A stretch of 64,000 nucleotides of DNA, taken from the NCBI GenBank assembly GCA_030271625.1, contig JARXKN010000001.1, positions 372,001-436,000 of the forward strand. The letters run 5' to 3'. The notes under the pieces are model-generated. The model saw only the letters and a list, made by a program, of their open reading frames with translations. It searched no databases and was not told the DNA's origin. The translations under genes were made by a program, and so were the position numbers. This DNA is from Patescibacteria group bacterium (GTDB taxonomy: Bacteria; Patescibacteriota; Saccharimonadia; Saccharimonadales; UBA4665). This document shows, piece after piece, positions 1-14,151 of the stretch; position 1 is the first letter of the stretch, and the number at the start of each line of letters is the position of its first letter.

Positions 1-545
1 AGTAGTTTGCTACTTGGAAGGAAGATTGCCGCATACAGGAAGTGTACGAATAAAAGCCCACTTGCAATTATAAAGAGGATACGTAGGTTAAGTCCTAGGT
101 ATATCAGTAAACTGGCTGATACCATGCCTATGATAGTAAATAATTCATCAATGATAACGGAACTCGAAAACACTTTTTTATATTCGTCTGAGTTTTCAAT
201 GTAATCGTCGTGGATGTAGGCTTCGTCGGCTCCTGACACAAATGCCCAAGCAGCACCTGTGAAGATGGCCGCGATAAAGAATACAGAAAATGAACTACCA
301 GCTGCTAGCAATATCATCCCGAGCAAATGGAGTAAGGCACCGAGCACTAACGAACGCTTGTTGTTAATTACATTCGCAATGAGGCCCGCGGGCAGGTCGA
401 CAATAGCTGTTACTAACAGAACGATTGCTTCAGTAAAAACTGCCTGAGGAAGTGTTAAGCCATTTTGAAGCTTCCATATGATTGCAATAGGTATAATTAA
501 ACCCATTGCATAATGCTGTAGTGCTATCTTAATGTAGTATTTCAT
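1..545 (-). CDS. MFS transporter, N-terminal part (cut by window start)
   Basis: I read this frame directly from the reverse strand: it opens at an ATG whose complement is 543-545 and stays open to base 1, about 181 residues. It shows hydrophobic segments typical of a major facilitator protein and an MFS motif-A-like loop, DLPAGLIANVINNKR, between the second and third segments, although the usual aspartate of that motif is Asn here. The substrate is unknown. A TATAAT on the reverse strand (553-558) lies 7 bases before the ATG, so the message is probably leaderless. The gene is divergent from the oxygenase/SDR/cyclohydrolase operon, so it may export or import that pathway's compound; this is inference from position only. 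Confidence 0.8.
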   Translation of the reverse strand, partial: MKYYIKIALQHYAMGLIIPIAIIWKLQNGLTLPQAVFTEAIVLLVTAIVDLPAGLIANVINNKRSLVLGALLHLLGMILLAAGSSFSVFFIAAIFTGAAWAFVSGADEAYIHDDYIENSDEYKKVFSSSVIIDELFTIIGMVSASLLIYLGLNLRILFIIASGLLFVHFLYAAIFLPSSKL

Positions 546-559
546 ATTGAAGATTATAG

Positions 560-588
560 TTGCGTAATTAACAATAGTATGTTATATA
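560..588 (+). promoter_or_regulatory. Probable promoter of the 602-4563 operon
   Basis: TTGCGT at 560-565 and TATATA at 583-588 are separated by 17 bases. The ATG at 602 follows 13 bases later. The element sits in a 56-base gap that also holds the reverse-strand TATAAT of the divergent MFS gene, so the two promoters overlap back to back. Confidence 0.5.
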
Positions 589-601
589 TTAATCAATTAG
601 G

Positions 602-1555
602 ATGACTATGTCGGAAACTGAAATGAATTTACATACTCCTGCCAAACTCTTTGAGTATGACCTGGCTTCCTCGTTAGACTATACCAGAATTACTGACTCA
701 CTTACATCAACAGTCAACAAATATGGAACAGCAAACAAAACTTTTGCGAGTTTGGGCCAAATTGGTTTGATAAATATCTTATCGACTGTTTCGCCATCGT
801 CAATAGAATTGCTTAAAGATGCTAAGTATCAGGTAAAAAATGGGCTCGGAGCAGTCGTACTTCATAATACCTGTGTAGAACTAGTGCCTGATCAAACCGC
901 ACAACTTATATCAATTACTTTAAGCTCTACTTTTGGTGAGCCTACAAAAACAGACCGCCAGCTTGAGCAGATCAGCTGGCCCATAAAGTACGTGCCAGAT
1001 CTCAAAATAACCCCAACATTTTCGCAATCATTAGGTGAGGCTGCATACCATACAGATACACAGTACTTTCCTGAACCAGAAGCATATTTTGGATTGTTTT
1101 GTAGACAGGCTGATATCATAGGTAAAGGCACGAATCGTCTACTGCCACTAGCAAAAGTTGTTGATAGTTTAGTCAAAATTTATGGTCATGATATCACCGA
1201 CAAACTGTCCACTTCATATCCCTTTAAAGTTCCAAGTGTTTTTACGGAATCAGTTCAGGATAGTGACACAGAAATAATATGGGAACCTATCTTAACTAAT
1301 AATGCTACGAGCATACGATACCGAAAAGATACAATTGATGCAGCTTTGGCAATTCCAGGAATCAAAATTGATAATTCTAAGTATGTAGCTCTCAATCGGC
1401 TCAATCTTGTCTTAGACGAGTTAGAACCTATTGAATACCATCTTCAGCCGGGCGATGCTTTATTCGTAAATAACTATCGGTTACTTCATGCGCGTACAGC
1501 GTTTGATAGTATGGACAGGTGGCTTTATAGAGTGCGTATGAAGGAAATCCTGTAA
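602..1555 (+). CDS. TauD/clavaminate-synthase-like Fe(II)/2-oxoglutarate oxygenase
   Basis: This 317-residue protein carries the metal facial triad of TauD-type oxygenases: an HTD at about residue 151 (AAYHTDTQYF) and a distal His in NNYRLLHARTAF near residue 297. Arginines a few residues later (RWLYRVR) would bind 2-oxoglutarate. Such enzymes use O2 and 2-oxoglutarate to hydroxylate or otherwise oxidise small molecules; the substrate here cannot be read. The next gene starts on the last base of its stop codon (TAATG), so the two are translationally coupled. Base composition is clearly more AT-rich than in the genes after 4600. An alternative start is the ATG at 608. The family call is firm, the function open. 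Confidence 0.82.
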   Translation: MTMSETEMNLHTPAKLFEYDLASSLDYTRITDSLTSTVNKYGTANKTFASLGQIGLINILSTVSPSSIELLKDAKYQVKNGLGAVVLHNTCVELVPDQTAQLISITLSSTFGEPTKTDRQLEQISWPIKYVPDLKITPTFSQSLGEAAYHTDTQYFPEPEAYFGLFCRQADIIGKGTNRLLPLAKVVDSLVKIYGHDITDKLSTSYPFKVPSVFTESVQDSDTEIIWEPILTNNATSIRYRKDTIDAALAIPGIKIDNSKYVALNRLNLVLDELEPIEYHLQPGDALFVNNYRLLHARTAFDSMDRWLYRVRMKEIL

Positions 1556-2337
1556 TGAATAACTATCAGACTGCAATTGTTACCGGTGCTAGCTCTGGTA
1601 TTGGTAGAGCACTTACGCAACAGTTGTGCGCTCAAGGCGTCACGGTCTATGCACTGGCACGTAGTAAGCGTAATCTTGAGCTAGCTAAGAATAGTCTACC
1701 TAAAGTATACAGAAATCTGTTAATACCTGTGGTATGTGATATTTCAAAGACCGAGGAAACGCAAGTTAAAATTAAAGAGATATTCTCATGTAGTCAGATT
1801 TACCTCGTAATTAATAATGCGGGCATAGGCTATAGTCGCAACTTTGTTGATTATTCAGATAACGAAATAGATACAGTGATAGCAACTAATTTGCGAGGTA
1901 CAATTACAGTTATTCAGGCATGCCTTAAACTGCGGGATAAGCAGCGCCCTATACATTTTGTTAATACAACTTCTTTAGCTGGTAAAATGGGCTTTCCTGA
2001 ATTGAGCGTGTACGCGGCTACTAAATTTGCTATAGAGGGGCTGACAGAATCCCTACGGCATGAGTATATGAACAAAGACGTTACATTTACCATCGTGCGG
2101 CCTGGCATAACCGATACGGCATTTTTTAGTAAGGCTGGTATGCAGCTATACAAAGAGGGTGTAAAAGAATTGAAGAGTTTTTATTCAGCAGAGCAGGTTG
2201 CTACTATACTGCTTGCAAAACTCCATTCTCGAAAATCGGTGATAATAGTTGGAAACGACAAATTTTATATACCGCTACTACCATTCGTACCATTTAAGTA
2301 TCGTTTTAAAGTATTAGATATTGTCAATAAACTATAA
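1555..2337 (+). CDS. Short-chain dehydrogenase/reductase (SDR)
   Basis: A 260-residue classical SDR. It has the glycine-rich cofactor motif TGASSGIG at residues 10-17, the NNAG motif near residue 88, a catalytic Ser in the NTTSLAGKMG segment and the YAATK active site near residue 154. These point to NAD(P)-dependent oxidation or reduction of a carbonyl/alcohol. The C-terminal 40 residues are hydrophobic and basic (FVPFKYRFKVLD), which suggests membrane association as in several SDR lipid or sterol enzymes. It lies in the operon between the 2OG oxygenase and the FolE2-like gene. A sepiapterin-reductase-like role on a pterin is conceivable given the neighbour but is not shown by sequence. Confidence 0.9.
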   Translation: MNNYQTAIVTGASSGIGRALTQQLCAQGVTVYALARSKRNLELAKNSLPKVYRNLLIPVVCDISKTEETQVKIKEIFSCSQIYLVINNAGIGYSRNFVDYSDNEIDTVIATNLRGTITVIQACLKLRDKQRPIHFVNTTSLAGKMGFPELSVYAATKFAIEGLTESLRHEYMNKDVTFTIVRPGITDTAFFSKAGMQLYKEGVKELKSFYSAEQVATILLAKLHSRKSVIIVGNDKFYIPLLPFVPFKYRFKVLDIVNKL

Positions 2338-2351
2338 AAGGAAGGATACGC

Positions 2352-3338
2352 ATGCCTAAACAATATAAAGATCCAGTAAATTACTCATTAACCGAGAACG
2401 ATTTTGCAAGCCCAAATTATGATAATTTTCTAGACGGACTTACTGACGTACCAGCATCGATTCCTCTTCAGCCTTATTCAATTGATCGTGCTGGAATTAA
2501 AGAACAGTTTGCCTACATAAAACTCAGATCACTATATGAGACAAACGAATGGGTTACTGTACTCGCTAATATTACAATGCAAGTTGGTTTAACGGGTCAT
2601 CGTGGTATTCATATGTCACGTTGTGAGGAAGCGCTTTTTAGTTTACTTGAAACCGAACACGACTCTCTTGATATGTTCGCGGTCGCTCTTGCAGAAAAAA
2701 TACTCGTCTTGCAAGATAGTGAATCAGCGTTTGTGAATGTAGAAGGGACGTACATTCACAAACGCAGCACCATTAAAAGTCACAAACAGTCTTACGACAG
2801 AATGACAATGTTTGCATATGCACAGGCTGAAAAGAACCACATTAGTAAAGTACAAATAGGACTAGCAGCTTTTAATATGACGGGCTGCCCATGTACGGAA
2901 ACCTTTACAAAATTTGCAGTCGTACCTCAGCTTAAATCGGCAGGATTCAACCTTAAGGAAATTACTAAAATACTTGATATAACGAATTCCGGCACGCATA
3001 CTCAGCGAGGTTTAGCTACCATTAGAATCGACAAAACAGATGAAGCTGTCACGTATGAAAAAATCTATGATGTTCTCAGCAAGAGCTGTCATTTGGTATA
3101 TGAGTTATTAAAACGTCCAGATGAACACGAACTAGTGGTTCGGGTTCTTAAGAATCCGCAATTTACGGAAGATGTTGTGCGAGATATTATTCATCACACA
3201 ATAAAGATTCTAGGAGTAAATTTACGTCAAGAAACACGAATATTTGCTTCCTCTCAGCTGTATGACAGCATTCACATACATGACGTATATACCGAAATCG
3301 AAAAGACCTACAGCGAATTAATTTCAGAACATGAGTAG
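2352..3338 (+). CDS. folE2: GTP cyclohydrolase, FolE2/MptA family (type IB)
   Basis: This 328-residue protein matches the FolE2/MptA family of zinc or iron GTP cyclohydrolases, which convert GTP to dihydroneopterin triphosphate or its cyclic phosphate. Visible family motifs are TGHRGIHMSR near residue 80, GCPCTE near residue 179 (metal-ligand Cys), SGTHTQRG near residue 215 and DSIHIHD near residue 311; the last two resemble archaeal MptA. A Shine-Dalgarno-like AAGGAAGG precedes the ATG. No other folate or queuosine gene is in the window, so the product may feed a dedicated pterin or 7-deazapurine pathway made by the neighbouring oxygenase and SDR. It overlaps the next gene by 8 bases. The family is confident; FolE2 versus MptA product is not decided. 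Confidence 0.85.
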   Translation: MPKQYKDPVNYSLTENDFASPNYDNFLDGLTDVPASIPLQPYSIDRAGIKEQFAYIKLRSLYETNEWVTVLANITMQVGLTGHRGIHMSRCEEALFSLLETEHDSLDMFAVALAEKILVLQDSESAFVNVEGTYIHKRSTIKSHKQSYDRMTMFAYAQAEKNHISKVQIGLAAFNMTGCPCTETFTKFAVVPQLKSAGFNLKEITKILDITNSGTHTQRGLATIRIDKTDEAVTYEKIYDVLSKSCHLVYELLKRPDEHELVVRVLKNPQFTEDVVRDIIHHTIKILGVNLRQETRIFASSQLYDSIHIHDVYTEIEKTYSELISEHE

Positions 3339-4563
3339 AATTGTGACTGCACCGGCAGAAACCTATCAACTTAACACTTTAGGAAGTGTTTTGGGGCGGT
3401 ACGCAATTCCCAACCTAAGTGAAAAATCGCTTAAGCAGGTCAACTACATGATGGATGTGACCTTAACTGAAATATCTGAATCGACAGTACCGCCAGTGCC
3501 ACATAATAATCCTTCGTTATTAGATGAGGCACTCTCATTTAATAATAAATTATTAAGCCAAGTTGAATCAGGACCAGCTAGCGGTCTTCTTCCTGTAAAT
3601 ATACGTAACGAGGTGATTGCGCGTTTATTGGCACACACTGCGGTGTGTGAAGAGCTAAAGATTAAATCGAGCATCTGGCAACGATTCGTTGAGCCTACAG
3701 ATATTGCTATCGCTTATGGCTTACCCAACCTCTGGAAAGATTCTAGTCAAGTAATACTTGAAGAAGTCTCGCGCTGGGGGTATCAGATGCAACATCCTGC
3801 AGTACCTGAAGTGCTTCGTCGTAAAGTAGCGCTCGATGAAACGCGTCAGTTAATGAGCCTTATGTGGCGTAAAGTAATTGGTGTAACCACAGAGCCTAAA
3901 GTAAATACATACCTCACTAAGGATACCCAAAATTACCATGTATACTGGTCGCCAACAGCTGAAACACTGGACTATGCGACTCCGGTTACTTATGACCGCG
4001 CAACGCAGTTGTCATTTGACTTACCTCATAATGCTACTCATTTAGTTCACCTTGATACATTGAATTCTTCAGATGGTGCAGCTAGGTATAACGATAATAT
4101 GGCGCAGCGAGCCTATTTTGAGGCTGTGACAGTTTTCTCTGAAGCTCAAACGATTAAGGTGGCTAGTAATGTTGAATTTAAAGACGAATTAGCGTCTATT
4201 TTCGGTTTGGATGACGAAATAATGCCCGATAATCTATCGGAGTGGGTTATTGCTGATAGAAAATATGAATTTAAACTTAGGGCGGCCAGATACGCAGCTG
4301 ATGTACTTATGTTAGAAGGCGCTTCTCTGGAAGAATGTGTTGACGAAATTTATCAGACTTTTGGGGTTAGCCGGAAGGATGCTGCTCAGGAGACAAAAAA
4401 ATACCTGCCATGGACGGGACTTGGTGCGGTCTATACTGCCGGGTATCGTCAGTTAGAAAGTCTAGGTATAAACACGGTTATGTCGGCTATTAAAACGCCG
4501 CAGGGTAAAGTTATAGACAGTTGGCATTGTTTAGGTGCTAGTGATATTGATACTGAGTTATAG
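3331..4563 (+). CDS. Unknown protein, last gene of the FolE2 operon
   Basis: A 410-residue soluble protein that I do not recognise with confidence. It has no signal peptide or membrane segment. A middle part holds THLVHLDTLN near residue 238, followed by RAYFEAVTVFSE near residue 263, an arrangement of two His and a downstream Glu that faintly recalls zincins of the DUF885/M32 type. The C-terminal third (about residues 315-385, with KKYLPWTGLGAVYTAGYRQL) also resembles the helical end of DUF885 proteins. These likenesses are weak. Because it overlaps the folE2-like gene and shares its AT-rich composition, it is probably part of the same pathway, perhaps a hydrolase or ligase acting on its product. 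Confidence 0.7.
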   Translation: MSRIVTAPAETYQLNTLGSVLGRYAIPNLSEKSLKQVNYMMDVTLTEISESTVPPVPHNNPSLLDEALSFNNKLLSQVESGPASGLLPVNIRNEVIARLLAHTAVCEELKIKSSIWQRFVEPTDIAIAYGLPNLWKDSSQVILEEVSRWGYQMQHPAVPEVLRRKVALDETRQLMSLMWRKVIGVTTEPKVNTYLTKDTQNYHVYWSPTAETLDYATPVTYDRATQLSFDLPHNATHLVHLDTLNSSDGAARYNDNMAQRAYFEAVTVFSEAQTIKVASNVEFKDELASIFGLDDEIMPDNLSEWVIADRKYEFKLRAARYAADVLMLEGASLEECVDEIYQTFGVSRKDAAQETKKYLPWTGLGAVYTAGYRQLESLGINTVMSAIKTPQGKVIDSWHCLGASDIDTEL

Positions 4564-5725: not shown

Positions 5726-5754
5726 TTGAATTCAGAAGGCTTATGTGGTATTAT
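5726..5754 (+). promoter_or_regulatory. Promoter of the Ig-repeat glycosidase-like gene
   Basis: TTGAAT (5726-5731) and TATTAT (5749-5754) are 17 bases apart. An in-frame ATG at 5745 lies between the two hexamers and cannot be used from this promoter, so the ATG at 5781 is the better start. The predicted leader of about 20 bases lacks a Shine-Dalgarno and contains TAAGCGTAAGC. Confidence 0.65.
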
Positions 5755-5780
5755 CCCAGCATAACCTAAGCGTAAGCAGT

Positions 5781-7895
5781 ATGACCTCAATACCTGATGC
5801 AGTAAATACCGATACAGCGCACTACTCAACTGAAAATAATAAGAGTGGCTGGTATCGGTCGGCACTGTTTGTAATCATAGTGTTGGCAGTGGCCGCCCTC
5901 GGTACCGCTTTGCAGCTCCGGAGTCACGCGACAACGGCGCGAGCCCTGCTTATAAAGACCGGCCAGGATATCCCATCGCCGGCGATTGTAAATACTAATA
6001 AAGCCTGGATTGATGGGCTGCCATTTGACGGCATTATTGTTACGCTGCCGGGCCTTGATGGCGGCACCTTCTCGACCACGAGCCACACCCTTGCGGAATA
6101 TCAGAGCGCTTTAAGTAGTATGCCAACTATGACGCATTCGGTGCACAACTTTGCGCGCGTTACGTTCCAGCAACCAGCTACGGCCTATGCCTGGGATACG
6201 ACCGCTAACTGGGACATTATGGCCGCCAATATGGGTAACTTGGCCAAAGCCTTAGCTGCCAAAGGCCAGTTTGACGGAATTATGATTGATCCTGAGTTTT
6301 ATGGGACCGGTGGTAGCCCCTGGAACTACGGCACCAGCAGCAGTCCGGCCTGGACCTTCTCAACGACCGCTGGCGCTACACCTGGCATGCAACCAGCCGA
6401 GGCAATTGCCGCCGCCCAAGACCGGGGTCACCGGGTTATGGAGGCCGTGAAAGCTAATTGGCCGAGCGCTAATGTTTTGACCTTCCATGGACCGTACGTC
6501 AGCGAACCGAAAACCGGCGCGGCCTTAGCTGGGTTTTACAATGATGTTGCCTTTGTAAACGAGATGATGGGGCCATTTGAAGTCGGGATGATGCAGTCGG
6601 CTGCCGGCAGTAGTATTACCTATCACGATGGTGGCGAGCTGTACGGTGCGCGCACGGCCGCAGATTTCCAAGCGGCCTATAACTGGCAGAAAACTGGTTT
6701 GGCTGACTCCGGCACCAATATCATGCCTAGCAGCTTTGCATCTACGTATAAGAGTACGGTTCACGCTTCAATTGGTGTGTATGATAAAGATATCTTAGCG
6801 ACAGGCTATCCCTTATTAAGTACTAGCACCTGGCAAAATTTGCTGACGTTGGCCATGGAGCGCGAGGACAACTATGTTTGGACCTACACCGAAACCTATG
6901 ACTGGATGCGTTCGGGCAGCGGCAAACCGGCAGTACCGCAGGCCTATATTGATGCCACCCGGGCGGCGGTCACTGCCGCCACTCCAACCAGCCCAATTGA
7001 TAGTTCGGCGCCAACGGTAACTGTCAGTGCGCCACTAAACGGCACAACAGTATCTGGTACCACCACGGTCCAAGCCAACGTCTCGGATAATGTTGGCGTA
7101 ACAAAGACTGAGTTTTACGTCGATGGCGCCCTAGCCCAAAGTGGTACAGCGACCGCCTTCAGTTGGAACACCACCACTAAATCAAACGGTAGCCATACCG
7201 TCCAAGCTAAGGCCTACGACGCCGCCAACAATGTTGGTACCTCTGCCGCCGATACCGTGACCGTTTCTAACGCTACGCCACCCCCCACTGGCGATACCAC
7301 CGTACCGGTTGTCAGTTTGACGGGTGTTAGTAATGGCCAGGCGTTGAGTGGCTCGGTGGTAATTGGCGCTAACGCTTCCGACAATGTTGGGGTTACTAAG
7401 GTCGTTTTTTACCTAGATGGAGCGCTAACCAGCACCGAAACTACGAAGCCGTACTGTCTGGCTAATGATAACGGAACCACTTGTTACGCTTGGAACTCTA
7501 CAACTGTCGCTAACGGCTCCCATAGCTTCCAAGCCAAAGCTTATGATGCGGCCGGAAATATTGGCTCATCGGCCACGCTGACGGTAAACATTAATAACAG
7601 CACAACGGCTACGGCCGACACTTTGGCACCACAAGTCAGTATCAGCGCCCCCAATGATGGCAGCACCGTCACGCGCAACGTGGCCATATCGGCCCAAGCC
7701 TCTGATAACATTGCCGCTACCTACATCGAAATCGACATCGATGGCGTGCTATTTGCTTCCTCTAACAGCGACACGATAGCAACTACCTGGAGCACACAGT
7801 CTAAGCGAGTTGGTAGCGGTCTGCACACCATAACCGTCATTGCCCGCGACGACGCCCGCAACACCGGCACGAAAAGCATTAAAGTTTACAAGTAA
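5781..7895 (+). CDS. Membrane-anchored glycosidase-like protein with three Ig-like repeats
   Basis: The start at 5781 is chosen because the promoter overlaps the earlier ATG; the protein is 704 residues. A short cytoplasmic end is followed by one membrane segment near residues 24-45 (ALFVIIVLAVAALGTAL), so the rest is outside. Residues about 55-395 look like a TIM-barrel glycoside hydrolase: they contain DGIIVTLPGLDGG, GIMIDPEFYG with a D-x-E pair that could be catalytic, VLTFHGPYVSEP and NYVWTYTETYDWM. Three bacterial Ig-like domains of the Big_7 kind follow, starting near residues 400, 495 and 610, each with a DNVGVTK or DNIAAT strand and a YVDG/YLDG/DIDG turn. It probably binds or trims surface polysaccharide. 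The exact hydrolase family is not assigned. Confidence 0.8.
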   Translation: MTSIPDAVNTDTAHYSTENNKSGWYRSALFVIIVLAVAALGTALQLRSHATTARALLIKTGQDIPSPAIVNTNKAWIDGLPFDGIIVTLPGLDGGTFSTTSHTLAEYQSALSSMPTMTHSVHNFARVTFQQPATAYAWDTTANWDIMAANMGNLAKALAAKGQFDGIMIDPEFYGTGGSPWNYGTSSSPAWTFSTTAGATPGMQPAEAIAAAQDRGHRVMEAVKANWPSANVLTFHGPYVSEPKTGAALAGFYNDVAFVNEMMGPFEVGMMQSAAGSSITYHDGGELYGARTAADFQAAYNWQKTGLADSGTNIMPSSFASTYKSTVHASIGVYDKDILATGYPLLSTSTWQNLLTLAMEREDNYVWTYTETYDWMRSGSGKPAVPQAYIDATRAAVTAATPTSPIDSSAPTVTVSAPLNGTTVSGTTTVQANVSDNVGVTKTEFYVDGALAQSGTATAFSWNTTTKSNGSHTVQAKAYDAANNVGTSAADTVTVSNATPPPTGDTTVPVVSLTGVSNGQALSGSVVIGANASDNVGVTKVVFYLDGALTSTETTKPYCLANDNGTTCYAWNSTTVANGSHSFQAKAYDAAGNIGSSATLTVNINNSTTATADTLAPQVSISAPNDGSTVTRNVAISAQASDNIAATYIEIDIDGVLFASSNSDTIATTWSTQSKRVGSGLHTITVIARDDARNTGTKSIKVYK

Positions 7896-11185: not shown

Positions 11186-11665
11186 ATGAACCCGGAGTTT
11201 ACGACCTATTTGCTGGCGCTAGAAGTGGCGCCTATGACCGTTGGGCAGGCCTATGAGCAGCTGCCGATGCACTGTACGGTCATGCATCGGTTTCACTCCG
11301 TCTTAACGCCTACTGAACTCGTAGCGGCATTGCAGCCGATTTTTAGCGCTACGGCGCCTATTGAGCTACTTCCAGCAGAACATGTAGCCTTTGGTCCTAA
11401 AAAGCAGTTGGTAACGCTAGTTGAGCAAACGCCGCACTTGTTGGCATTACATGCCGAACTATTTGCCGCCTTGAATAAGTTAGGCGTGCAGTACACCGAG
11501 GCCGATTGGGTTGGTGATGGCTATGTGCCGCATGTAACCGACAAGCAGGGTAAGCGGCTTCCGGCGCGTTCTAGTACTCTTAGCTCAGCTGCCTACCTGA
11601 TTTCCGTGCAGCACCCACTGCAAGGGCACGCGCGCTTTATTGAACATAAGTTTGAGCTGTTATGA
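11186..11665 (+). CDS. 2H phosphodiesterase (2'-5' RNA ligase-like) protein
   Basis: A 159-residue protein with the two H-x-T motifs that define the 2H phosphoesterase superfamily: HCT near residue 29 and HVT near residue 116. Family members act on 2'-5' linked RNA or cyclic phosphates. A TATGAT at 11174-11179 lies six bases before the ATG, so a leaderless message is likely. Its last four bases overlap the start of the next gene (ATGA), so the two form a small operon. The substrate is unknown; a role in tRNA or RNA repair is only a family-based guess. Confidence 0.8.
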   Translation: MNPEFTTYLLALEVAPMTVGQAYEQLPMHCTVMHRFHSVLTPTELVAALQPIFSATAPIELLPAEHVAFGPKKQLVTLVEQTPHLLALHAELFAALNKLGVQYTEADWVGDGYVPHVTDKQGKRLPARSSTLSSAAYLISVQHPLQGHARFIEHKFELL

Positions 11666-12573: not shown

Positions 12574-14151
12574 ATGGCTACGATTACCAAAATTAAATAT
12601 CACGAATCTGAATTTAATAGATTAAAGAATATTAAACATGGTCGAAACTGGCCAGTAGTTTATATGCTTGAAAATAAAAGAGAAGTGTATATTGGCGAGA
12701 CTACCAATGCGTATATCAGGTTCAAGCAGCATAATGAAAATGCTATACGTCGTACCTTGGACGCTGCCTATGTAATAGCTGATGATGAATATAACAAATC
12801 TGCAACTCTTGATACAGAATCATTACTCATTCAGTATATGGCGGCAGACGGAGTCTATCAATTACAAAACGGCAATGGCGGTTTAGCCAACCACAATTAT
12901 TTTCAAAGAGAGAATTACCGGAAAAAATTTGATAGTTTATGGAAACAGCTTCAAGACTTGAAGTTAGTAAAACATGACCTGGTGCAGCTGCAAAATTCGG
13001 ATCTTTTTAAATATTCACCATATAAAGCACTGACCGATGAACAGCTATTGCTTGTTGACAATATTATTGAAACGATACGGACTTCTAGCTCCCAAAGTTT
13101 TATCATCAATGGAGAACCAGGGACTGGGAAGACTATTGTCGGTGTCTTCTTGATGAAATATCTTCAAGAAATCCCCGATTTAAACCTAAAGGTTGCTCTG
13201 GTTGTACCTGTAACTGCACTCAGAAAAACCTTGAAAAGAGTTTTCGCGAATGTGAAAGGGCTCAGTCCGAATATGGTGATAGGACCTAACGAAGTTGTAG
13301 GTAAGAACTATGATCTTTTAGTGGTAGACGAGGCTCATCGTCTCAAACGGAGGGTGAATCTAACTAATTATGTAACGCACGACATTTCGAATAAAACACT
13401 TGGTCTTGGAAACGAAGGTACACAGTTTGACTGGATAATGAGGTCATCTAAATACCAAATATTTTTATATGACGAAAACCAAAGCGTAATGCCTACGGAC
13501 ATACGACCGCAACAAGTGAAAAGCATTCATGCAAAGAGCTATTCTTTAAGCATTCAAATGCGCGTGGAAGGTGGTGAAGATTATATTAAATTTGTGAATG
13601 ATTTTCTGGCCCTTAAAGCTCAGTACGCATTCGAAACTGATCAATACAAATTTGTCATCTGCGACACAATCGACCAACTCAAAACGTCAATATTGGCTCG
13701 CGAAAAGGAAGCAGGGTTGAGTAGATTGGTTGCGGGCTACGCGTGGAAATGGCAGACAAAAGGAAATAACCCAGCCGCTCAATTCGATATAGAAATCGAG
13801 GATACAAAACTGAAGTGGAATAGTGTAAATATTGATTGGGTAAATTCTAAAAATGCAATTAATGAGGTAGGTTGTATCCATACTATTCAAGGATACGACC
13901 TGAACTATGTAGGAGTAATTATAGGGCCAGAATTAAAATATGATCCCATCAAAAAACTCCTAAATGTCGATAAATCAAAGTACGTTGATTTTAATGGTAA
14001 GCGTTCAATTACCGACCCAACTGACCTCGATAACTATATTCGTAATATCTATAAGACTTTGCTAACAAGGGGAATTAAAGGTACGTATGTGTATGCAGTT
14101 GATCCTGATCTCAGGGCTTATATGAGTACCTTAAATCAAAAAACAACTTAA
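12574..14151 (+). CDS. GIY-YIG nuclease fused to DUF2075/Schlafen-type helicase
   Basis: A 525-residue two-domain protein. Residues about 25-115 form a GIY-YIG-type nuclease core (VVYMLENKREVYIGET then YIRFKQH). Residues about 140-520 are a DUF2075 superfamily-1-like helicase or ATPase: Walker A NGEPGTGKT near residue 184, Walker B LLVVDEAHRLK near residue 249, FLYDENQSV near residue 297, SIQMR near residue 325 and the HTIQGYDLNYVGVIIG segment near residue 436. This architecture occurs in genes linked to phage defence or DNA processing. AT-rich codon use differs from neighbours on both sides. It follows MazG by 2 bases and precedes a toxin-antitoxin pair. Confidence 0.85.
   Translation: MATITKIKYHESEFNRLKNIKHGRNWPVVYMLENKREVYIGETTNAYIRFKQHNENAIRRTLDAAYVIADDEYNKSATLDTESLLIQYMAADGVYQLQNGNGGLANHNYFQRENYRKKFDSLWKQLQDLKLVKHDLVQLQNSDLFKYSPYKALTDEQLLLVDNIIETIRTSSSQSFIINGEPGTGKTIVGVFLMKYLQEIPDLNLKVALVVPVTALRKTLKRVFANVKGLSPNMVIGPNEVVGKNYDLLVVDEAHRLKRRVNLTNYVTHDISNKTLGLGNEGTQFDWIMRSSKYQIFLYDENQSVMPTDIRPQQVKSIHAKSYSLSIQMRVEGGEDYIKFVNDFLALKAQYAFETDQYKFVICDTIDQLKTSILAREKEAGLSRLVAGYAWKWQTKGNNPAAQFDIEIEDTKLKWNSVNIDWVNSKNAINEVGCIHTIQGYDLNYVGVIIGPELKYDPIKKLLNVDKSKYVDFNGKRSITDPTDLDNYIRNIYKTLLTRGIKGTYVYAVDPDLRAYMSTLNQKTT

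What the first reader, a model, noticed from the sequence alone, without database searches (positions are those of the whole stretch)
1..4563. AT-rich cluster pairing a FolE2/MptA GTP cyclohydrolase with a 2OG oxygenase, an SDR, an unknown protein and a divergent transporter
The four operon genes overlap or nearly touch (1555, 2352, 3331) and share AT-rich composition that stops at about 4600, where chromosomal composition resumes. Known families: FolE2/MptA makes a dihydroneopterin phosphate from GTP; SDR and Fe(II)/2OG oxygenases tailor small molecules; MFS exports. No folate or queuosine genes accompany them. Together they could form a small-molecule pathway based on a pterin or deazapurine, an unexpected capacity for a small-genome bacterium.
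Basis: partly seen in the sequence, partly recalled or inferred. Interest (0 to 1): 0.62.

Follow-up and report, generated by a model that had tools for sequence, protein, structure and literature searches.

The report
Mobile GTP-derived small-molecule gene cassette
A very small bacterium carries a horizontally moving set of five genes that looks like a kit for turning GTP into an exported small molecule; the same kit occurs in two other distantly related tiny bacteria, and its core sits on a plasmid of a soil actinobacterium, so it looks like a shared, undescribed pathway.

Summary
Four co-directional, touching genes encode a TauD-type Fe/2OG oxygenase, an SDR, a FolE2/MptA-family protein and an unknown protein. 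They face a divergent MFS transporter whose gene runs off the window's left edge (true span -585..545). The block has 40.0% GC against a 48.6% mean and lies in a variable region behind a tRNA-Glu gene.

The set is conserved. All five genes recur in Ca. Peribacterales and in a code-25 genome of the same class (57 in-frame TGA read as Gly). The oxygenase and FolE2-like genes, with a possible equivalent of the unknown protein plus an aminotransferase, sit on a conjugative Arthrobacter plasmid. The four FolE2-like proteins form their own clade (bootstrap 99). They keep seven conserved Cys/His/Glu positions, but all carry Asp where eight other family members have Glu, and all score below the curated FolE2 and MptA cut-offs. 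The unknown protein is a remote DUF885 relative whose HExxPGH motif has become HNxxHLxH. The genome has no detectable QueD/PTPS or dihydropteroate synthase.

Best reading: a mobile GTP-derived small-molecule pathway with export. The chemistry is untested and the product unknown.

The parts
1..545 (-). 181-aa N-terminal part of a divergent MFS (drug-efflux-like) transporter; the gene continues off the window (true span -585..545, 376 aa)
   Evidence: Pfam MFS_1 1.3e-8 for the part, 1.5e-9 for the full protein; best NCBIfam similarity to TetA(P)-type efflux, far below cut-off. MFS genes also flank the cluster in L005 and L014, only weakly similar to this one (32% over 95 aa, E 5e-12; 27% over 164 aa, E 3e-8)
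546..601 (.). 56-bp intergenic region between the divergent transporter and the operon; presumably holds both promoters
   Evidence: sequence; promoter scan not clearly above background
602..1555 (+). TauD/clavaminate-synthase-type Fe(II)/2-oxoglutarate oxygenase, with the HTD motif and distal His/Arg conserved in all four homologues
   Evidence: Pfam TauD 6.7e-14; alignment with the Peribacterales, G641 and Arthrobacter homologues, 30/28/38% identity, invariant H150, D152, H296, R310
1555..2337 (+). classical short-chain dehydrogenase (TGASSGIG, NNAG, YxxxK)
   Evidence: Pfam adh_short 8.2e-44; 37% and 33% identical homologues in the two other complete clusters; motifs
2352..3338 (+). FolE2/MptA-family GTP cyclohydrolase-like protein of a separate clade, with Asp in place of the Glu of the ESIHxH motif
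   Evidence: Pfam GCHY-1 1.2e-40; 44-50% identical to the three other cluster copies; clade bootstrap 99; Asp at N. gonorrhoeae position 243 in 4 of 4 cluster copies, Glu in 8 of 8 others
3331..4563 (+). remote DUF885 relative with HNxxHLxH-(x21-23)-E-x6-E in place of HExxPGHH ... EGWxLYxE; probably a metal-binding enzyme
   Evidence: Pfam DUF885 at 0.0073 here and 2.6e-4 in the Peribacterales homologue, both below the curated cut-off; hhalign with an MSA of 15 DUF885 proteins, probability 94.6, E 6.8e-8; reversed control probability 0.1; best PDB profile hit is the lipoprotein 3o0y, E 0.23, over the same region

Best explanation
The cluster is a horizontally mobile small-molecule pathway. Shown by sequence: five conserved gene families that travel together in lineages using different genetic codes, sitting in a variable region behind a tRNA-Glu gene in this genome. 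Inferred: the FolE2/MptA-like enzyme uses its retained Cys/His/Glu site to hydrolyse the imidazole ring of GTP (or a related purine nucleotide) to a formamidopyrimidine or dihydropterin phosphate. The DUF885-like metalloprotein and the Fe(II)/2OG oxygenase then remodel this intermediate. The SDR (in Arthrobacter perhaps an aminotransferase instead) reduces or aminates a carbonyl formed on the way. The MFS protein exports the product or protects the maker. The substrate, order of steps and product are inference.
For: Full five-gene sets in three genomes and a core set on a conjugative plasmid. FolE2-like copies 42-50% identical to one another and a clade of their own. Conserved residues retained in the FolE2-like protein (C147, C149, H159, E201, E216, H246, H248 in N. 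gonorrhoeae numbering), the oxygenase and the SDR. No QueD/PTPS or FolP in the genome. Low GC, and variable cargo behind the same tRNA-Glu in four congeners. No match in PADLOC.
Against: No biochemistry. The fixed Glu-to-Asp change and scores below both curated cut-offs mean the reaction may differ from FolE2 or MptA. The three MFS proteins are only weakly alike and MFS genes are common, so the export step is the weakest; SDRs are common too. The Arthrobacter counterpart of the unknown protein is supported only by a short motif and gene position (BLASTP E 1.0; hhalign probability 1.9). In L005 the contig ends inside the oxygenase gene.
Confidence: 0.58

Rival explanations
1. A pterin cofactor supply set: the genes make a reduced pterin (tetrahydromonapterin- or biopterin-like) used inside the cell, with the SDR as the pterin reductase, and the MFS protein is incidental or an importer.
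For: FolE2-type enzyme plus an SDR recalls the FolE/FolX/FolM and sepiapterin reductase routes (own knowledge); no other pterin source was seen, since FolP and PTPS were not found.
Against: The SDR has the classical TGxxxGIG motif, not the TGxxxRxG of pteridine reductases/FolM (own knowledge); an Fe/2OG oxygenase and a DUF885 relative have no place in known pterin cofactor routes; the set is sporadic, which does not fit an essential cofactor.
Confidence: 0.15
2. A non-GTP pathway: the FolE2-like protein has been recruited to another heterocycle or a non-nucleotide substrate, and the cluster makes an amino-acid-derived metabolite (the oxygenase is nearest to clavaminate synthase, arginine hydroxylase and trimethyllysine dioxygenase types).
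For: Fixed Glu-to-Asp change next to the conserved HxH in the FolE2-like clade; scores below both GTP cyclohydrolase equivalog cut-offs; similarity of the oxygenase to amino-acid hydroxylases.
Against: All other conserved Cys/His/Glu positions checked are kept; oxygenase matches are far below the curated cut-offs and do not define a substrate.
Confidence: 0.17
3. A 7-deazapurine pathway (preQ0-like) as in toyocamycin- or huimycin-type clusters or deazaguanine DNA modification.
For: FolE-type enzymes start 7-deazapurine synthesis (own knowledge).
Against: No PTPS/QueD family protein in the whole genome while the same search rings in 9 of 14 control genomes; no QueE- or QueC-like gene apparent among the ORFs of the four loci (not tested by profile).
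Confidence: 0.04
4. A defence or nucleotide-depletion island: the genes act against phages by altering the GTP pool, in a tRNA-linked hot spot.
For: Location in a variable tRNA-Glu region with an NYN-domain gene.
Against: No PADLOC match for any of seven proteins; no sensor or effector domain; an oxygenase, an SDR and a transporter fit metabolism better.
Confidence: 0.04

Closest known systems
FolE2 (GTP cyclohydrolase IB; N. gonorrhoeae 3d2o)
   Same: Pfam GCHY-1 domain over the full length; conserved Cys147, Cys149, His159, Glu201, Glu216, His246, His248 positions
   Different: 22-26% identity to canonical FolE2; insert between CPC and HxQR as in MptA; Asp for Glu243; 103 bits against a cut-off of 215
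MptA (archaeal GTP cyclohydrolase making dihydroneopterin 2',3'-cyclic phosphate)
   Same: best NCBIfam match (4e-50), full-length, same long insert
   Different: 170.6 bits against a cut-off of 220; about 25% identity to Natrinema MptA; Asp for Glu
DUF885 (PF05960; probably PDB 3o0y)
   Same: C-terminal region and the E-x6-E spacing of EGWxLYxE
   Different: HExxPGHH is replaced by HNxxHLxH, so the Glu is Asn; about 410 aa against mostly 540-730 aa; below the Pfam cut-off
TauD/clavaminate synthase-like oxygenases (Cs1, VioC, GntD, TMLD)
   Same: fold family and HTD...H...R residues
   Different: 27-40 bits against cut-offs of 268-450; substrate unknown
Biosynthetic clusters reported in CPR genomes (linear azole peptide, lantipeptide, terpene; PMC7298704)
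   Same: a specialised-metabolite-like cluster in a reduced genome, which that paper calls rarely reported
   Different: none of those is nucleotide-derived; no such gene is among this cluster's five families

Membership tests
FolE2/MptA superfamily (PF02649) | full-length match above the gathering score | tested here: met
   140.2 bits against 25
FolE2/MptA superfamily (PF02649) | conserved Cys/His/Glu site residues | tested here: met
   C147, C149, H159, E201, E216, H246, H248 positions kept in all 4 cluster copies; which of these bind metal was not verified in a paper
FolE2 (NF010200, equivalog) | score over the curated cut-off | tested here: not met
   103.2 bits against 215; the three other cluster copies 87-112
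MptA (TIGR00294, equivalog) | score over the curated cut-off | tested here: not met
   170.6 bits against 220; the three other cluster copies 151-158
FolE2 and MptA | Glu in the ESIHxH motif | tested here: not met
   Asp in 4 of 4 cluster copies, Glu in 8 of 8 others
FolE2 and MptA | GTP turnover | not testable with these tools
   needs purified protein
DUF885 (PF05960) | score over the gathering cut-off | tested here: not met
   16.4 and 21.2 bits against 32.4
DUF885 (PF05960) | HExxPGH and EGWxLYxE motifs | tested here: not met
   second motif's E-x6-E kept, first replaced by HNxxHLxH
DUF885 (PF05960) | profile-level homology | tested here: met
   hhalign probability 94.6, E 6.8e-8; reversed control 0.1
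TauD/TfdA oxygenases (PF02668) | match over cut-off and HxD...H facial triad | tested here: met
   52.9 bits against 27; H150, D152, H296 invariant in four homologues
classical SDR (PF00106) | TGxxxGxG, NNAG, YxxxK | tested here: met
queuosine/7-deazapurine pathway | QueD (PTPS family) in the genome | tested here: not met
   no match in G000; 9 of 14 controls ring
folate pathway | dihydropteroate synthase (PF00809) in the genome | tested here: not met
   no match in G000; 13 of 14 controls ring
known anti-phage defence system | PADLOC model match | tested here: not met
   0 of 7 proteins

The most novel reading that the evidence does not exclude
An undescribed class of GTP-derived specialised metabolite, made by ultra-small, probably host-dependent bacteria, using a re-tuned FolE2/MptA enzyme and a DUF885-type peptidase-like protein turned to a new metal-dependent reaction, and exchanged with actinobacteria by conjugative plasmids.
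Probability: 0.33. Interest if true: 0.82.

Novelty: new variant of a known kind. Interest (0 to 1): 0.62.

Why it matters
Patescibacteria are thought to make little beyond the basics, and biosynthetic clusters in them are described as rarely reported (PMC7298704) or uncommon in streamlined genomes (PMC12455944). A compact five-gene pathway seen in at least two such lineages, one with a changed genetic code, and in part on a plasmid of an actinobacterium would give a tractable way to test whether such cells make molecules that act on their neighbours or hosts. The FolE2-like clade and the HNxxHLxH protein are also candidates for new enzyme chemistry starting from GTP.

Tried and rejected
First genome-contig scan with the single FolE2-like sequence found nothing; the two-sequence alignment found the Peribacterales locus and a distant Salinicola homologue. 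Three viral-contig scans found no relative. The AlphaFold model of the unknown protein from a two-sequence alignment was poor (mean pLDDT 44), so no fold search was run. phmmer of the unknown protein against PDB gave nothing of note. A Saccharibacteria 16S probe pattern recalled from memory had no match; this is inconclusive because 16S may be missing from the assembly. No usable direct repeat of the tRNA-Glu 3' end was found: the only 16-base match is an inverted one about 300 bases downstream, inside the NYN gene, so integration at the tRNA is not shown. Paper searches for FolE2 or GTP cyclohydrolase with such clusters returned none; the FolE2 mechanism papers are not held. Considered and set aside: deazapurine pathway, folate remnant, phage defence.
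Full report
Observation. The window begins inside the cluster. ORFs at 602-1555, 1555-2337, 2352-3338 and 3331-4563 are intact and co-directional, with touching or overlapping ends. They match TauD, adh_short, GCHY-1 (FolE2) and nothing above cut-off. The divergent transporter is complete only outside the window, at -585..545. The block -585..4563 has 40.0% GC, against a mean of 48.6% (SD 2.2) for 942 overlapping windows of the same size in 476 kb of the same contig; only three windows are as low. GC rises right after 4563.

Setting. Upstream lie an NYN-domain gene (37.7% GC) and a tRNA-Glu gene. In four congeners homologues of the same two surface-protein genes precede a tRNA-Glu, and what follows differs in each. 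In one of them, the closest by the surface protein (G002), a gene homologous to window 11186-11665 lies about 7 kb from the tRNA, against about 12.5 kb here. This is a variable region. An integration event at the tRNA is not shown, because no usable direct repeat was found. The 3331-4563 protein was found in none of the other 198 genomes searched around this one, and the FolE2-like protein in none of the other genomes of a 380-genome sample of the phylum.

Conservation. A tblastn search found the FolE2-like and oxygenase genes side by side on the conjugative plasmid pZXY23 of Arthrobacter sp. ZXY-2 at 51% and 41% identity. They are followed by a 347-aa protein and a class III aminotransferase. 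An alignment search then found a Candidatus Peribacterales contig with a divergent MFS gene and SDR, FolE2-like, DUF885-like and oxygenase genes, the last cut by the contig end. A search of the class of that genome found a third full set, in the window's operon order with the MFS gene last on the same strand, in G641. There the five ORFs hold 57 in-frame TGA codons, several at conserved glycines, so table 25 applies. Identities to the window are 44-50% (FolE2-like, all copies), 33-37% (SDR), 28-38% (oxygenase, all copies) and 24-32% for the DUF885-like protein of the two full sets. The MFS proteins are only weakly alike. The set has therefore not moved very recently between these hosts.

The FolE2-like protein. 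In a tree of 12 sequences the four cluster copies form a clade with bootstrap 99; their internal branching is unresolved (55-64), and an earlier 11-sequence FastTree placed the clade beside MptA. All keep the conserved positions C147, C149, H159, E201, E216, H246 and H248 (N. gonorrhoeae numbering). All four have Asp at position 243, where the eight others have Glu. All four score below the curated FolE2 and MptA cut-offs. Stand-alone family members in G122 and G875 have Glu and no partner genes nearby. I could not read a mechanism paper, so the role of residue 243 is not stated here.

The unknown protein. Two of the three copies in the full sets hit DUF885 weakly at the same profile positions (0.0073 and 2.6e-4, below cut-off). 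A profile of the three against 15 DUF885 proteins from the class of a Salinicola genome gives hhalign probability 94.6, with a reversed control of 0.1. The best PDB profile hit, 3o0y, is weak (E 0.23) but covers the same region. All four cluster proteins, the Arthrobacter one included, have HNxxHLxH followed after 21-23 residues by E-x6-E, where the DUF885 proteins used have HExxPGH and EGWxLYxE. For the Arthrobacter protein this motif and the gene position are the only links (BLASTP E 1.0, hhalign probability 1.9). I infer a metal site altered from a peptidase-like one.

Pathway context. The genome has no detectable PTPS/QueD or dihydropteroate synthase, so an ordinary folate or queuosine role is not supported. 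No PADLOC model matches.

Interpretation. The most likely explanation is a mobile pathway that starts from GTP or a similar nucleotide, modifies the intermediate with a metalloprotein, an oxygenase and an SDR, and exports the product. The alternation of SDR and aminotransferase suggests a carbonyl intermediate. All chemical steps are inference. Biosynthetic clusters in CPR genomes have been described as rarely reported (PMC7298704) and uncommon in streamlined genomes (PMC12455944). I found no paper on this one in the library searched.

Limits. Only four loci are known. G000 is unnamed; that it is a patescibacterium is inferred from its 1.15 Mb size and that of its relatives. The structure model was poor.

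Noticed in passing
L014 (G641:C32:7000-18768): A genome in the class of a Ca. Peribacterales genome whose cluster ORFs read TGA as glycine (57 in-frame TGA in five genes); same operon order as in the window despite the code change.
   Followed up: partly
window -1202 to -747 (L003:5799-6254, -): NYN-domain protein of 151 aa with the lowest GC of the block (37.7%) between the tRNA-Glu and the transporter; not seen in the other clusters.
   Followed up: no
window 12574-14151: AT-rich 525-aa ORF that by eye resembles a GIY-YIG plus DUF2075-type helicase protein; a second low-GC patch (12-14 kb).
   Followed up: no
window 5745-7895: 716-aa protein with three Big_7 Ig-like domains, probably a surface protein, behind the cluster.
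   Followed up: partly
L026 670-2064 (G202): 464-aa DUF885-like protein with intact HEGIPGH and EGW motifs in another genome of the phylum, weakly scoring.
   Followed up: partly
L074 8965-9894 (G122): Stand-alone FolE2/MptA-family gene with Glu in the ESIHxH-type motif and no partner genes, in another family of the same order.
   Followed up: yes
L004 14008-15594: Arthrobacter class III aminotransferase with an extra N-terminal region of about 150 aa; nearest curated model is the daptide aminotransferase, far below cut-off.
   Followed up: no
G000:C6 about 152000-164000: Another stretch of unusually low GC on the same contig, within 2 points of the cluster's GC.
   Followed up: no
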